Origin: Cladochytrium replicatum
Taxonomy: Eukaryota > Chytridiomycota > Chytridiomycetes > Cladochytriales > Cladochytriaceae
Reading direction: 5' to 3'
NCBI GenBank assembly: GCA_025526935.1
Contig: JAHLKD010000039.1
Location: 340,167 to 404,166 of the forward strand
DNA length: 64,000 bases
Below, in pieces: positions 26,292 to 33,842 of this stretch (position 1 is its first letter; each line of letters opens with the position of its first letter). The translations under genes were made by a program, and so were the position numbers. The notes beneath the pieces were generated by a model, which ran no database searches, was not told the DNA's origin, and saw only the letters and a program-made list of their open reading frames with translations.

Positions 26292-29200
26292 TCAAAACAT
26301 TGATTTTTCCCTGAAAAGCAACCTGCGCGGGTTCTTTTCGTTCCCCAATGTAACAAACTCGTCTGCAACAAATTGTTTGACTGTTTGTCGACCGACCTTC
26401 GCAGTCAATTCCAACTCGTCCCCACCTTCAGAGCATAAACTCATTCTTCGACTGCTTCCACGTGCTTTTCGAGTCGAGAGAGGAGATGCTAACACAGATG
26501 GCTGAAGAGTCTGATCAAGCATTGCTGCACCAAGGTCCCCCCAATCAATCTTACGAAATGCTCCGCCGGACCGCTGTCCACTATCAGTTCCCGCCTTGGT
26601 TACGCGCCATAGTCCGCCCGGACTTCGGTGGAACTCTGCGCCATCCGTGAATTTGTCTACTCTCGGTCTTTGCGAACTTTCTCCTCTTCTTCGAATCGAC
26701 TCCCTCAGTTGAAATTTGCGCGAAGAGCACTGAGGCGTGCGACTTTGTTCTCTAGTCCATCTTTTTGGTGTAACACAATTGTTGGGAGATCGATCCCCAA
26801 GGTTGGCCTCAAAGTCTGGAGGGCCCTCTCGTGGGGTTCCGAGTGGCTGTCTTTCGATATTCCTGTGAACGTAGTAGGCTCTTCTGGGTGTTGCCGTGAC
26901 GTTTGTCGATAACAACTCAACAATATTTTCTTTAACCTGCTGCACTTGATTTCTTCGAGCCTGTCGAGGAGAAACATAGTTGGAACCAAAGGTGGGCTTC
27001 TGCTGCAAAAAAGTATTTGATCTTGGATGATTCGCTCTGTTGGTGAGGTTTTGTGAAGAGGTTCGAATTTTGCTTTTTGGACTTCTGGTAGCCACAACAA
27101 CATCCGAAACCGTTCGTTTGAATCCCCGGGAAGCAGGGTTGGCCAAATCCTTCAAATTTTGCTTTTGGTCAGTGCCCCTTTTCAGATCCGCTTTGATAGA
27201 GCTGAAACTTGATCCTTTCTGAGCCAACATTTTTCCTTCATTCCTGACAGTCCATCCGTGCAGAGTCTTCATCCTTTTCAATTGATCTGCAAGTCGAGAT
27301 TGCATAGATCTTTTGGTGATATTTTGCTGGGTATCGCAGTGTGTATCACTGCTTGTCTTTATATCGATTTGAGCAGTGTCGTCATGAATCTCGGTCCTCT
27401 GTTCTGACTCAACGCGAAGTCGTTTCCTCTCTCTGATGTCGTTCTCAAGTTCGGGTTTTGAAGAGCGACCTTTCACATTCATCATCTTCTTTGACAATTG
27501 TGGCATAGGTTGTGAGACTTCTCTGAATGAACCCAAGGTAGCTCTGGGGCTACCAATTGTAGTGTTCTTGTGCATATCAAAACCACCTTTGGCCAGCAGT
27601 GTAGGAACGAAGTTTGATAATGGTGATCCAAAACTGTTGATCATATTAGCTCGGTTCACCGAACGAAAACGTAAGCGACTTACAATGGCACAACGACAAG
27701 CTCCGCAAACTGGGCAAATGAATTTCCATCGGCGCTAATTGACATCTTGTCTATCTCCGGATTTTTTTGGTCCAACAATTGCACTGAACTGAGGGACTCC
27801 AGTAGACACATCGACTCTACAATCTCTGCACATCGGTCTTCCAAAAACCGAATCGGATCATGGGTTTTGTGTCCAAAACCAATCTTTTCGTTGTCATCTG
27901 TGACACATTTTCTTTTTCTCGATCGTCCAAGCAGATCTGCGAAACTCTTCCCAGACTTCCCCAACGCATTCAGTCGTTTTTTTGACGCTTCCGTTGTCGC
28001 ATGCTCGGCAATTGTTCGTCGAGTAAGCGTTTCAGGAATTGGAGGAACTTTGGCACGCTCAACAACATGCAGGCGTAGGCATTCCAGCGTGATAACGAGC
28101 TGTAACCTCAGCCTATCAAAATGCGTCGTCAGTGAACATCAACGCCTTCGTCATGTGGTATTACTCTGTGATTTTCAACTTATTCACAGCGTTTGTGATT
28201 CCATCATTCGTGGTGATATCCATCCAGTGCTGCTCGCGCCATCCGCATATTAGTTCCAAATCTTGAGATTCCATCTGTTGAGCCGGTTCCACTTGGCTGA
28301 CTAATGGATCTTCAGCAGCTTGCGCACACATTGTCTTCAACATTATGCTAAAATTTCGATACTTCTGATCGAGCCTGACGAGCGGAACCATCAAATGATG
28401 AACGATAAAGTCGATTGCCTGGGAGCGCAACATCCAATATGAGTGCAAGCAAATAGGACGCGAAGATTATCGTACCTCGCTATTTCGAGAGTTGTTTATG
28501 TCTGGATCAGAGTTGAGGTGTCCTGCGGAAGCAGAACGGAGATTCATGTAAAGATCTGGGAATGCTTCACTAATAAGTTCGGTCAACGTCTTAAAAGCAG
28601 CGAGGGGATAAGAAATTGAAACCACGTTGCGTTGCAGTACTTGTAAATACCTTATCACTAAAGACTACTTCCCGGCACTGCAAGCGGAACTCTTCAAGCA
28701 CTTCGTAAGCGCTGCGTACAAGATGAACTTTCGGATTAGGGCGAAAATTCTCAACATTCACATCCCCAGAAACTGTGTCTTTCATTTCTTGAAGCTTTTG
28801 CGAGCCCGTATGCTTCTCATCGAAAGTTGAGCGATGTTGCACCGTATGCGCTTCCCATTCAAAGTCAAATACACCCAAGGTGTATGTGAACAGGTCTTTC
28901 GTGTTTATTTGCGAGGACGAGAAATCCGACTTCCGTTCATAGGCATCGAAAAACTCGGTAATCGACTCAGGAAGGTCGTTATTATTCCAAGACGCTTTTG
29001 AATCAGCGAAATGGTCTGCACCGGGCTCTCCAATGAGCGAAATTACGGCTTGTTCTGCATCGCTTTTAACACAGATAACATAAGCCGATCTAAATCCCGT
29101 GTGGTAGAGTAATGCAAGCACGGAGTTGTTGTTGCTGGTTTCCGAATTGTATCCAACACGAGCCAGCAACGCATTCTTTCCTCCTTCAAGTTGTTCTAGA

Positions 29201-30928
29201 AGCCTCCCGAATTGTCCCACACTGATCTCGTCCGATACAGGGAAGCACAGGAAATTCTGCCGCAAGAATGTCGCAGAAGTGTCACCATCATTTAAATCGT
29301 TCGATTCGTCATCTCCTTCAGCCATGTGATTAGAGCACAATGAATTTCGATCGATTATCATGTCCCTTGAGATGTGATCATCCACCAAGGAACCAAGAAT
29401 TGTAATGATCAGAGGCATGGACTTCTCTTTCAATGGCATCTCGGACTCTCTTTCGAAGCTCGAAGTGGCTATGGGCACCTCCCTTCGCACACGGTCCCAA
29501 TTACCAAGATTCAGTTATGTTTCAATCTAAAGACCGCCTTTCTTACTTACAGTCGCAAAGGCTTCAAAAAGACTTCGACTTGCACGAGAATGAATTTTAA
29601 AACATGCTGGTCGCTATTCTACAAAACATACCGCGTTCCGATGTCTCGAAGACGATTTCGGCATTGGCAAGAGAATTCTTCGAATCACTTCTCCGAAAGT
29701 CCGTGTGAAAGGTGGTCATTGACCAAACTGTTTCATTCCCTGCAGAGTTCTCTGGAGAAATTCTGAGTAGATCCTTGCAATCTTTGGGATCCGCAAACTG
29801 AAATCGAAGGGGTGCTAAACTGATCTTCAGTGGAATGATTGCTCCATTCAAGTTATTCACAAAGGATTGGGGAAGAAATGTTCCAGCGTAAACTTTGAGG
29901 ATGCAGAAGAGCCAATGATGTATCGTTGCTGATTCGAAACTGAAAGCAGGACCCTGTTCAGAGATAAGTTGAATATCAAGATAAATGAGACGTTAGAACC
30001 TTATCTGAAACAGCGAACCAGCTTAACGACGTCCGAGTGTCAAGAAACCCATCTAGCAAGCCCCGCCCCAGCAGTCGGTCCCGCAAGCGAAGTAGGAGCA
30101 CGCTGTGTTTCTGTGGATTTGCATCGAATGCTGATGAAACTAATTGAGCACCATCAAATCGAGCAAGGTCGTGAAATGAGCCAGGTGCCCGGCCGAAGAG
30201 GAATACATGGTTCCTAATTCTCACAGGATAGCGGTGCCGAGTTCTTATATCATCCCTGGGTCTACTTGCCGTCATCCCTGCACCAAACGAAGAGTTTACG
30301 GCGCGCATTCGCTGGCGACCAGGGGAACTTCTGCGGGCTCTGGGAACTTCCAAGAGCCATTTGAAATCAGCAAGTGACTTTCTCAGCACCATGGCATATG
30401 CGTCGAGAGGACTGGGTGCGGAAGATGAGTTGATGTTAGGATCTTTAGGGGCCAAACCAGATAGCGATTCGACTGCCGAAAGTGAAGCATGCTGGACTAA
30501 TGAGAAGAAGTCACTGTAAGACGAGGAAGAAAACTCCTTTCCGTGGCAGGAATGAAGAGGCAAACTTGTTTCTGTTACAGTTGTGCGGTTGAAAATCTGG
30601 TAGGTAATTGATGAGATAATGGTTAAGGAAATTCCGAGAAAGAAAGTTGAGCAGCAGTAATGAGTAACTAATAAGGATATCTCCATGTTACTCTGCTGTC
30701 CACGAACAAATAGAAGTAGAGGATCGTTCGTAGCGCACACGTTGTGGTCGTATCAACAAAACGTGATGCATGGTCCACTGCATCGTCGTTGGTTAATACC
30801 GCAAGTGTTGGAATGGCATCGGCGATGTCGATTAGAAATATTACATTTGGAGGAGGCCGCGTTGCCGTTGCTGGGGAACTGAGCAAGGATTTGGCTGGGT
30901 GTTGGTAATTGAAGTTGTCCTTCGCCAT
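26292..30928 (-). CDS. Treslin/TICRR-Sld3-like replication initiation protein
   Basis: Nine minus-strand exons: 30928-30681, 30603-30000, 29953-29632, 29578-29551 (28-nt microexon), 29482-28651, 28589-28476, 28418-28165, 28112-27684, 27633-26292; 1390 residues. The N-terminus has a vWA-like start (NVIFLIDIADA) and VTWSYQIFN, aligning with the Treslin start pattern (VHWAFKFFD), then HVFLFGRAPGSFHDLARF and TSLSWFAVSDK. A helical middle (TLTELISEAFPDLY, AIDFIVHHLMVPLV, LRLQLVITLECLRL) resembles the Cdc45-binding Sld3-Treslin domain. The basic, disordered C-terminus has several CDK-type S/T-P-x-K/R motifs (RSPKSK, SPRQAR, TPRR, TPKR), as in proteins that bind TopBP1/Dpb11 when phosphorylated. Sequence similarity is low, so the family call is an inference from layout. 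Eight joins keep frame; the first intron is AT-AC. Confidence 0.5.
30604..30680 (-). other. U12-type (minor spliceosome) AT-AC intron
   Basis: This is the first intron of the Treslin-like gene, 77 nt, phase 2. On the minus strand it begins ATATCCTTAT (30680 down), matching the U12 5' splice site, and contains TTCCTTAAC (30630-30622), an exact U12 branch site about 19 nt before the terminal AC at 30604. No GT-AG intron restores a sensible join here: the only one in phase drops the conserved VTW residues. Splicing AT-AC gives VTW-SYQIFN, which fits the family. Confidence 0.8.
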
Positions 30929-31434
30929 ATTATGCCCAAAAAAGGAAAGTTTCCGTAAGGTCACCAAATGGACTGACCGTATTTCAGAACTATTTCCGAT
31001 TCTTGATTTAAGAGCTGGTATCTCACCAGTGTTCGTCAGTTGAAACAGATAGAAAGTTTGCAGAATAGTTTATTCTATGCTTTATGTAACAACAATAATA
31101 CGTCACTGCCACTCCGCTCACGTGACAAATTCGCCGGCCCAACAAACGAAACCAACCAAACAGCTCGCAAAACGTTTTGAGGTCGGCTCAACTGTGTAGG
31201 CACACCTGGCCCTGCATCTCGCTCGCAATCGAAACCTCGATTGGTTTGCGCTGAAGAAGGACTAGCTGCTGTTGCCTCGCTCGATCAAACTGGTGGGTTA
31301 ATTGGTAGAGCAAGCAAATAGCAAAAAGGAGCTCGTTCTTATATGTGCATGTTTTTGTCCATGTCGTAGGTTGAAGGACAGTTCTTGCCTCAATTCCTCT
31401 TCGGTCTTCATTTCCGCACACTGTCTCAGTGGAA
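30929..31434. promoter_or_regulatory. Divergent promoter region between Treslin-like and cyclin genes
   Basis: About 0.5 kb separates the two start codons. It should hold both promoters. No defined element is recognised. Confidence 0.4.
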
Positions 31435-33842
31435 ATGAGCTCAACAGATTACATCGACCATGCTGGTTTTGCTCCTTCTGAAGGCACAGAGCAGATGAAG
31501 GACGTAAGGAACAGTCCGGCTACAGCAGCGTTAGAATCTTCTCATCCGGATTTGGGTCAGAAGCATCCATTGGTACCCATCAATGACAAACCAAACATTA
31601 TAAAGAAGGACTCTCCGACTTCCATGAAAGTTCCACAAAAAATCATCCTACCGTCTCCTTCTCAGTCTCGAAAGCGTCCGCGCTCTGAAACTCCATCCGA
31701 AATCATGCAATCATTGGAGCAACGCTTGAAAAAGTTCAAGACGTTATCCTCCTCCGATGCTGACCAATGGATTTTTTCGACCGAGGAACTTTTATTCACT
31801 CCATCGTTTGTTCATCTGGGCAAGAAGTATTATGATGAAGTGTTTGAACGTGCACGTGGATGCGATTTTATGAGGAAGTGTGCTAGAGATCTCGGCCTGT
31901 AAGTGAACTGATATAGCTAAAGTTATTTCAAGTTCTTACCAAATCCCTATCTCTCATACAACAGCCCAACTGAGACCTTGTGCATGGCAAAAATGTTGTT
32001 CCATCGTTTCTATATGCGAAAGCCGATGACTCAGACAAAAGATTATATTTATTGGCATATTGCGGCGACATCGTTATTCATTGCCGTTAAAAGTAACGAT
32101 ACCTACCGCAAGCTGGATGCAATTATCCCTGTGGTTATTAAGTACTCCTCCAAGAAGGAAAATGTCACGCCGAGGGATAAGGTGGACAAAAGTCTCTCCA
32201 ACTGATTGTGCAATCTAACATTGGTCTTTCTCAGGAGTGGATAGTGTGGAAGGACATTATTCTCTCAACGGAAGATGTTATTTTGATGAGTGTATGTTTT
32301 GATCTGACAATGGAGTTTCCACACGCGTATGCAGTGGATCTTGTTTGGCAATACTCGGAGATAGTTCCTGCATCTGGTATTGTCTGACTCACTTCCTTTA
32401 TTCTGCTGGTTCTCACCGAACACGGCTGTGCATCGGTAGTGCTAGACAAACTCGCAATTCAAGCGTATCATTACTCGACTGACTGGTTTGTATCAACCTT
32501 TCCTTTGCATATCGGCTGCCTGATAATCTCCAAATACACAGCTTGAACTCGATGCTTTGTCTTAAGCTCCCACCACACCTTCTGGCATACGTGGCGGTAT
32601 TCATGGCTTGCCAATCAGTTGGAACCCAGCTCGTTGACCCTATCAATAACCAACCATTTTGGACTGTTGCAAATTTCAGGGAGAGATTTCTCAAGGGTAA
32701 TCAATCGAAACAATGTCTATTGAGATCAAGGTTAATGGATGAATGTAACAGATTCGGAGAAACATGTGACAGCTCTTTCAAAAATATCCGCCGTTAGCTC
32801 GCTTCTCCGAAAGTCCCTTGAGCACCGCCTTTGCGAGCCATTCGACGACCCTACCGCGATTAATCAGGTGAGATATCGATTTTCTTAGTAAACGTTTCTG
32901 ATGGATGCCTTGTTCCAGCCATATCAACGAAGGATCTTCGTTCAATCTACCGAGAAGGCTGCTACTCACAGTGTTCAGCCCATTTTCCAGCACCGTGCTA
33001 GCCTACTAAACACACCATCACCAACCAGCCCCGCGAAGTCGCCAGGGAAACAGCACTCTCCTGCGCGGACCAGCGAAGATATGTCTTCAGCCACTCCAAT
33101 TTCCCAAGCCAGTCCACAATCAGTTGTCACAACAACCTCTTCACGCGAGAGTTCTAAGCCGCAACCGGCTTCTAATGAAGGAACCATTTTGGAACCGGGC
33201 CCCGGTGACTCAATCTCACGCCCTCCACAGTCAGAATCAAACGGAGATGCCCGGAAAGCGAGAAACACAGATAGAAATGTTGCACAGGAGTCGCAGAAGG
33301 CCGTTCCATGGAAACGGTCTGGTCACGCAAACTCTAATCACAGAGATCGGCCAAAGAGCAATGGACCTTCTCACTCCGCTGGGCAGATATCCGCTTTTGG
33401 ATCCGTTCATCCATCTGGCGATGCACCTCGACATACTAATCACCAAAATAATCCGATATGCGCACCAATGATTGGTCGTATGCAACGCCCAACTTTTGTA
33501 CCGGCGCCGAACGTTCAGTTTCAAGCTTCCCATTCATATGCAAACATGATGCCTCTGCTTCCACATCACGATATGCACGGAATGGGATTTTACCCCCACT
33601 CTTCACACATGCCTCCTCAGCACATGCCATACTCCGCCCATCCCCCACCGCCACCCCCTGGACCTCCTCCTCCGATGCCCCCACCACCACCGCTGACAGA
33701 CGATGAAGCAGACATAAATGTATATTGGCATCAACAGGGTGAGGCTCAATTTTTTGATGGCACAATACCGACTCAAAATCATCAGCAAGTGCTTCCTGGT
33801 TCAATTGGAATGTGGAGTGGTGGTCCAGGGTGGAAAGTGTGA
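31435..33842 (+). CDS. Cyclin K/T-like transcriptional cyclin
   Basis: Seven exons: 31435-31898, 31965-32181, 32235-32376, 32440-32485, 32542-32696, 32752-32867, 32919-33842; 687 residues. These cyclins pair with CDK9/CDK12-type kinases to phosphorylate the RNA polymerase II C-terminal domain. The first cyclin box starts WIFSTEELLFTPSFVHLGKK and includes MAKMLFHRFYMRKPM, YIYWHIAATSLFIAVKSND and ILSTEDVILMSVCFDLTMEF, matching cyclin K in order and spacing. The second box contains LPPHLLAYVAVFMACQSVG. A basic stretch (SRKRPRSETPS) precedes the fold, and the tail is disordered and Pro-rich (PPPPPPGPPPPMPPPPP), also typical of cyclin K. It could be the BUR2/CTK2-type subunit; K versus T cannot be settled by eye. 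All joins keep frame. Confidence 0.85.

What the first reader, a model, noticed from the sequence alone, without database searches (positions are those of the whole stretch)
30604..30680. A U12-type AT-AC intron in a fungal gene
The intron starts ATATCCTT and has TTCCTTAAC about 19 nt before a terminal AC, both matching the minor-spliceosome consensus. Using AT-AC joins TGG-AG to C-TAC in phase and recovers VTWSYQIFN, which aligns to the Treslin start. Most fungi have lost U12 introns, while some Mucoromycota and chytrids keep them, so this bears on the host's position and spliceosome.
Basis: partly seen in the sequence, partly recalled or inferred. Interest (0 to 1): 0.85.

Follow-up and report, generated by a model that had tools for sequence, protein, structure and literature searches.

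The report
Rare-type intron in a chytrid gene
A likely DNA-replication gene of the chytrid fungus Cladochytrium replicatum carries a rare kind of intron that is cut out by the second, minor splicing machinery, and the genome holds more introns of this kind and candidate RNAs to remove them, so the finding is real and adds one more fungus to those known to keep this system.

Summary
Confirmed. Minus strand 30680-30604 is a 77-nt AT-AC intron with U12-type signals: ATATCCTT donor, TTCCTTAAC branch site, branch A 19 nt before the last base. Open frame alone does not select it: 36 GT-AG and 39 GC-AG joins are also open. A deposited Cladochytrium replicatum protein (BJ742DRAFT_813373) does: it equals this splice over 943 aa, with VTWSYQIFN at the junction.

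Five more AT-AC U12-type introns lie in CSTF2-, POLD1-, IPMK-, RXT2- and SETD3-like genes; two are confirmed by deposited proteins, three by homology. The genome has U6atac above the Rfam cut-off, and U4atac, U11 and U12 candidates below it, a U4atac/U6atac stem II helix, TATAAA near -31 in three of the four, and a 65K/RBM41-type RRM. U12 is the weakest.

Minor introns are known from another chytrid and other early fungi, so this is a new member of a known kind. Unusual: 6 of 6 verified introns are AT-AC.

The parts
30604..30680 (-). U12-type AT-AC intron, 77 nt, between exons 1 and 2 of a Treslin/TICRR-like gene, phase 2
   Evidence: sequence; deposited protein P0001 has this splice
30673..30680 (-). 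5' splice site ATATCCTT; can pair with the U6atac candidate (AGGGA) and the U11 candidate (AAGGG); duplex energies had no shuffle control
30622..30630 (-). branch site TTCCTTAAC, branch A at 30623; can pair with the U12 candidate (GUAAGGA)
30604..30605 (-). 3' splice site AC
30681..30928 (-). exon 1, coding part, from ATG at 30928
   Evidence: identical to P0001
30000..30603 (-). exon 2
   Evidence: identical to P0001
26292..29999 (-). rest of the gene: exons 29953-29632, 29578-29551, 29482-28651, 28589-28476, 28418-28165 and from 28112, with GT-AG introns; last exon probably ends near 26292 (later exon ends not modelled by me)
   Evidence: P0001 ends ...FREKSMF like the ORF that ends at 26292
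30597..30691 (-). rival GT-AG intron GTAACATGG...CTACCAG: in frame, but would delete VTWSYQ; not the one in the deposited protein

Best explanation
The stretch is a spliceosomal intron of the minor (U12-type) class, AT-AC subtype, in a Treslin/TICRR-like gene of the chytrid Cladochytrium replicatum. [quoted passage not shown] Shown here: the sequence signals, the exact junction in a deposited protein, five sibling introns, candidates for the four minor snRNAs, and one 65K/RBM41-type RRM gene. Inferred: that these RNAs are transcribed, assemble and splice this intron.
For: Signals and spacing. Deposited C. replicatum protein identical over the first 943 aa of my 944-aa model (the last residue lies at the unfinished edge of the model), with VTWSYQIFN. 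CSTF2-like: deposited protein has AVRNLNNYDVEGRPLRV, same length and nearly the same residues in three other chytrids. RXT2-like: deposited protein 100% over 224 aa with NRGNKLKRRA; Pfam RXT2_N, 35.6 bits, spans the join. POLD1-like: 48 residues align to Pol delta without a gap, E 3.6e-19. SETD3-like: 41 residues without a gap across the join, E 3.4e-8. IPMK-like: PDB kinases align across the join, 4frf E 2.7e-8. U6atac 34.4 bits, cut-off 33, genome E 1.7e-5. U4atac 42.8 bits, genome E 1.1e-4, cut-off 53. U11 36.0 bits in its locus. U4atac/U6atac stem II -33.6 kcal/mol, reached by 0 of 1000 shuffles. TATAAA at -31, -33, -31 of U6atac, U12, U11. 65K/RBM41-type RRM.
Against: No RNA reads seen; no call says how the deposited models were made. 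U12 is weak: nothing at E 0.001, 19.7 bits and genome E 2.42 when E up to 10 was allowed, a setting at which 7 of 14 control genomes also rang; its fold is not remarkable (z -0.65 body, -1.94 3' stem-loop). U11 in the genome search had only 28.5 bits, E 0.067, and 3 of 14 controls rang at that setting. U4atac/U6atac stem I alone is no better than shuffles (156 of 1000) and is missing from the predicted joint fold. U4atac has no TATAAA. CENATAC and ZCRB1 not found. Branch-to-end distances of 23 and 26 nt in two siblings exceed the usual 10-20 (recalled). Other open joins exist.
Confidence: 0.96

Rival explanations
1. The true intron is an ordinary GT-AG intron, for example 30691-30597 (GTAACATGG...CTACCAG), and the U12-like signals are chance.
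For: That join is in frame and stop-free, one of 36 such GT-AG joins.
Against: The deposited protein contains VTWSYQ, which this join deletes. Human Treslin as recalled has VHWAFKFF at the aligned place. Five other genes have the same signals at supported junctions.
Confidence: 0.02
2. An AT-AC intron spliced by the major (U2) spliceosome.
For: U2-type AT-AC introns, mostly with ATAAGT-like donors, are known (recalled).
Against: Donor ATATCCTT and branch site TTCCTTAAC are the minor consensus, and minor snRNA candidates are in the genome.
Confidence: 0.015
3. The minor system is present but decaying: the snRNA loci are partly relics and the few introns left are spliced poorly.
For: Only 6 of 18 pattern places are verified introns. 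U11, U12 and U4atac fall below Rfam cut-offs. A second U11-like copy, L020, has 21.2 bits and a changed Sm site. Two minor proteins were not found.
Against: The long U4atac/U6atac stem II is intact, TATAAA boxes are in position in three of four, and the three deposited proteins that I looked up have the AT-AC junctions.
Confidence: 0.05

Closest known systems
Minor introns of other early-diverging fungi (Spizellomyces punctatus, Neocallimastigomycetes, Rhizophagus irregularis, Basidiobolus meristosporus, Phycomyces blakesleeanus, Rhizopus oryzae)
   Same: same class of intron; minor snRNAs reported in these groups (PMC10639083 and PMC2846911, passages seen)
   Different: another order, Cladochytriales; the six verified here are all AT-AC, while Phycomyces is listed with about equal numbers of both subtypes
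Blastocystis minor introns
   Same: rich in AT-AC (196 of 253) per PMC10639083 (passage)
   Different: a stramenopile with 49% phase 0 and a mean length under 42 bp; here 5 of 6 are phase 1, one phase 2, lengths 67-89 nt
U12-type AT-AC introns in general (Rfam snRNA consensus used for comparison)
   Same: donor ATATCCTT and branch site TTCCTTAAC
   Different: the U6atac candidate has AGGGACGG where the Rfam consensus has AAGGAuGG, and the U4atac candidate CGUUCCUC where it has CCuuCCUU

Membership tests
U12-type (minor) spliceosomal intron, AT-AC subtype | 5' splice site ATATCCTT | tested here: met
   exact, 30680-30673
U12-type (minor) spliceosomal intron, AT-AC subtype | branch site TCCTTAAC close to the 3' splice site | tested here: met
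   TTCCTTAAC, branch A 19 nt before the last base
U12-type (minor) spliceosomal intron, AT-AC subtype | terminal AC, spliced protein restored | tested here: met
   deposited protein P0001 has the junction
U12-type (minor) spliceosomal intron, AT-AC subtype | junction seen in RNA reads | not testable with these tools
   no reads available
Minor spliceosome | U6atac | tested here: met
   34.4 bits, cut-off 33, full length, genome E 1.7e-5; 0 of 14 control genomes rang
Minor spliceosome | U4atac able to pair with U6atac | tested here: met
   42.8 bits, full length, genome E 1.1e-4, 0 of 14 controls rang, but under the cut-off of 53; stem II beyond shuffles, stem I not and absent from the joint fold
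Minor spliceosome | U11 | tested here: inconclusive
   28.5 bits, E 0.067 in the genome search, 3 of 14 controls rang at that loose setting; 36.0 bits, E 7.3e-4 when its locus was scanned, cut-off 39; AUCAAGA loop, CAUAAUUUUUG Sm site, TATAAA at -31. Likely real
Minor spliceosome | U12 | tested here: inconclusive
   no match at E 0.001; 19.7 bits, E 2.42 at the loose setting, 7 of 14 controls rang; AUGAGUAAGGA core, AUAUUUUUGG followed by a stem-loop, TATAAA at -33. Probable
Minor spliceosome | U11/U12-65K (or its paralogue RBM41) | tested here: met
   L033 (C22:261640): best PDB sequence matches 2cpx 2.7e-12 (FLJ11016; that this is RBM41 is recalled), 9xu3 RBM41 4.1e-12, RBM40 1.7e-11; next, another RRM protein, 5.3e-9. 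Two introns were removed by eye; the paralogues were not separated
Minor spliceosome | 31K (ZCRB1), CENATAC | tested here: inconclusive
   7 RRM matches at 25-34% identity, none reaching the zinc knuckle; no Pfam CCDC84 match, but 0 of 14 controls rang either
Treslin/TICRR (Sld3) family | N-terminal and STD similarity | tested here: inconclusive
   22% over about 254 aa to a recalled human sequence, pairwise E 9e-6; Sld3_STD 14.9 bits, cut-off 24.9; no other homologue found

The most novel reading that the evidence does not exclude
Cladochytrium keeps a small minor-intron set made only, or nearly only, of AT-AC introns, together with changed U6atac/U4atac recognition sequences that favour or tolerate this subtype: a lineage in which the GT-AG half of the minor class was lost or converted.
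Probability: 0.25. Interest if true: 0.55.

Novelty: new member of a known kind. Interest (0 to 1): 0.38.

Why it matters
Most fungi have lost the minor spliceosome. A chytrid with verified AT-AC introns in replication and RNA-processing genes and with candidates for all four minor snRNAs adds a retention point in Chytridiomycota and another fungus in which to test what minor introns do. If GT-AG minor introns prove to be missing, the changed U6atac and U4atac sequences would make a direct test of how snRNA sequence shapes which minor introns survive.

Tried and rejected
Frame as proof: rejected, because 36 GT-AG, 39 GC-AG and 89 AT-AC joins are open in the range scanned.

U12 by its 5' core (20 bases, 3 mismatches): 4 hits against 2 in the reversed control; Rfam saw no U12 at any of the four loci. 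The later candidate differs from that pattern at 4 places by hand count.

GT-AG minor introns: three GTATCC places, L003, L031 and L038; none gave a supported join.

The 12 unverified places of 18, judged by eye: L023, L026, L029, L032 seem to read through as coding; L024, L030, L031 seem coding, perhaps on the other strand; L004 seems to lie inside a GTATGT...AG intron; L003, L025, L038 have no supported join; L037 has an open AT-AC join but no homologue.

Covariation of U4atac and U6atac: my first reading was too strong. The stem II helix (U6atac 41-48 with U4atac 2-9) lies one base out of the register of the Rfam alignments, so its changes cannot be called compensatory pair by pair.

Pfam: nothing for the first pieces of the Treslin-like protein or for the SETD3-like piece. 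The IPK match begins just after the join, so it does not test the join itself. CENATAC and ZCRB1 not found. L034 and L035 (C16, C129) in the 65K search look like U1A/U2B''-type proteins by eye. The paper on RBM41 holds no word on fungi. Cladochytrium with spliceosome words: one paper, by title unrelated, listing only.

Full report
WHAT IS THERE. The stretch 30604-30680 lies in a gene on the minus strand: ATATCCTTATT...GGAATTTCCTTAACCATTATCTCATCAATTAC, 77 nt, branch A 19 nt before the last base. Exon 1 (ATG at 30928) and the frame downstream are not in phase; the AT-AC join makes VDSRVTWSYQIFN. Frame alone is weak evidence: among introns of 30-249 nt in the stretch scanned, 36 GT-AG, 39 GC-AG and 89 AT-AC joins are stop-free, one of them a GT-AG intron 30691-30597.

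THE ORGANISM AND THE DEPOSITED PROTEIN. I built a model with this intron and six GT-AG introns and searched public proteins. One came back (only the 7997 candidates sharing most words were scored): BJ742DRAFT_813373 of Cladochytrium replicatum, 1390 aa. It equals my model over its first 943 of 944 residues; the last residue is at the unfinished edge of the model. VTWSYQIFN is in place. The contig length given for it, 404166, is that of contig C39. The bases at the junction do not allow it to slide, so this protein implies 30680/30604. I did not see how the depositors derived it. C. replicatum is a chytrid of the order Cladochytriales.

THE GENE. VTWSYQIF lies under VHWAFKFF. Pfam gives only a sub-threshold Sld3_STD match (14.9 bits, cut-off 24.9), and the PDB no relative. 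The name is likely, not proven.

SIBLING INTRONS. Three pattern searches of the 50.5-Mb genome gave 4 against 1, 16 against 6 and 10 against 3 hits, pattern against reversed control: 18 distinct places. Six are introns by protein evidence. (1) The Treslin-like gene. (2) CSTF2-like: the deposited protein has AVRNLNNYDVEGRPLRV; three other chytrid proteins have the same length and nearly the same residues there. (3) POLD1-like: 48 residues align to Pol delta without a gap, E 3.6e-19. (4) IPMK-like: PDB kinases align across the join (4frf, E 2.7e-8), but the join lies in a variable stretch and the strong Pfam IPK match (144.4 bits) starts after it, so frame and length fit while the exact ends are less sure. 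(5) RXT2-like, donor ATATCCTC: deposited protein 100% over 224 aa with NRGNKLKRRA, RXT2_N 35.6 bits across the join. (6) SETD3-like: 41 residues without a gap across the join, E 3.4e-8; Pfam found nothing in the piece. In the CSTF2-, POLD1- and SETD3-like cases the boundary could slide by a base or two; AT-AC is the canonical choice. Lengths are 67-89 nt, branch-to-end distances 13-26 nt; five are phase 1, one phase 2. The CCTTAAC branch site in all is partly a product of the search pattern. The patterns allowed GT as well as AT at the start; none of the three GT places was verified. The other 12 places are coding, inside an ordinary intron, or unsupported, by eye.

THE MACHINERY. U6atac: C48, 34.4 bits, cut-off 33, genome E 1.7e-5. 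U4atac: C34, 42.8 bits, genome E 1.1e-4, cut-off 53. Control genomes were silent for both. Their stem II helix (U6atac GAGGGACG with U4atac CGUUCCUC, eight pairs with one G-U) is part of a longer duplex of -33.6 kcal/mol that 0 of 1000 shuffles reached. It lies one base out of the Rfam alignment register, so I do not call its changes compensatory. Stem I (GUUGGC with GCCAAC) has one two-sided change from the Rfam consensus (A-U to G-C), but alone it is no better than shuffles (156 of 1000) and the joint fold of the two RNAs lacks it. U11: C24, 28.5 bits and E 0.067 in the genome search, 36.0 bits in its locus (cut-off 39) with the AUCAAGA loop and the CAUAAUUUUUG Sm site, and a body about twice the model's length. 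U12: C13, no match at E 0.001, 19.7 bits and E 2.42 at the loose setting, but with UGCC...AAUGAGUAAGGA near the 5' end and AUAUUUUUGG followed by a stem-loop. At the loose setting 7 of 14 control genomes rang for U12 and 3 of 14 for U11. TATAAA stands at -31, -33 and -31 of U6atac, U12 and U11, against 1.4e-4 per base in the loci fetched; U4atac has none. The U12 candidate can pair with the branch site, and U11 and U6atac with the donor (no shuffle control). A gene on C22 encodes an RRM whose best PDB sequence matches are 2cpx (2.7e-12), RBM41 (9xu3, 4.1e-12) and RBM40 (5obn, 1.7e-11; that RBM40 is 65K is recalled), ahead of the next RRM at 5.3e-9. RBM41 and 65K bind stem-loops of U12 and U6atac (PMC11039992, abstract start in the listing). 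ZCRB1 and CENATAC were not found, which says little for genes split by introns.

WHAT IS KNOWN. PMC10639083 (passages) reports minor introns in Spizellomyces punctatus, Neocallimastigomycetes, Rhizophagus irregularis (205) and Basidiobolus meristosporus (249), and cites about 4 in Rhizopus oryzae and about 20 in Phycomyces. PMC2846911 (passages) lists both subtypes in Phycomyces. Cladochytrium is not named in the main text of PMC10639083; its supplement could not be read and may list this genome. Searches for Cladochytrium with spliceosome words and for minor introns in chytrids turned up no report on this species in the listings; only open-licence papers were searched.

VERDICT. The kind is known; the lineage is a new point as far as I could see. 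The open oddity is that 6 of 6 verified introns are AT-AC. If about 26% were AT-AC, as PMC10639083 gives for human, six of six would have a chance of about 3e-4; if half, about 1 in 64. The strict donor pattern may favour AT-AC introns, so a full census is needed.

Noticed in passing
L019:1360-1617 (C24) and L020:1501-1679 minus strand (C25): Two U11-like loci. The first is about twice the Rfam model length; the second has 21.2 bits, a changed Sm site (AAUUAUUUAUUUUUGG) and no TATAAA that I can see upstream, perhaps a pseudogene.
   Followed up: partly
L005:1501-1623 minus strand and L006:1501-1642: The U6atac and U4atac candidates differ from the Rfam consensus in the stretch where they pair with each other and where U6atac meets the 5' splice site, yet still pair well.
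   Followed up: partly
L022, intron at C3:576621-576697 minus strand: A minor intron with donor ATATCCTC, a departure at position 8, in an RXT2-like gene whose deposited protein has the AT-AC junction.
   Followed up: yes
L037 (C1:259504-259555 minus strand): A possible further AT-AC intron (phase 0) that joins two short open frames; no homologue found.
   Followed up: partly
window 31434-33842, plus strand: Divergent from the Treslin-like gene, a gene with several exons that looks by eye like a cyclin K/T-type protein.
   Followed up: no
L034 and L035 (C16, C129): Two very similar U1A/U2B''-like RRM genes.
   Followed up: no
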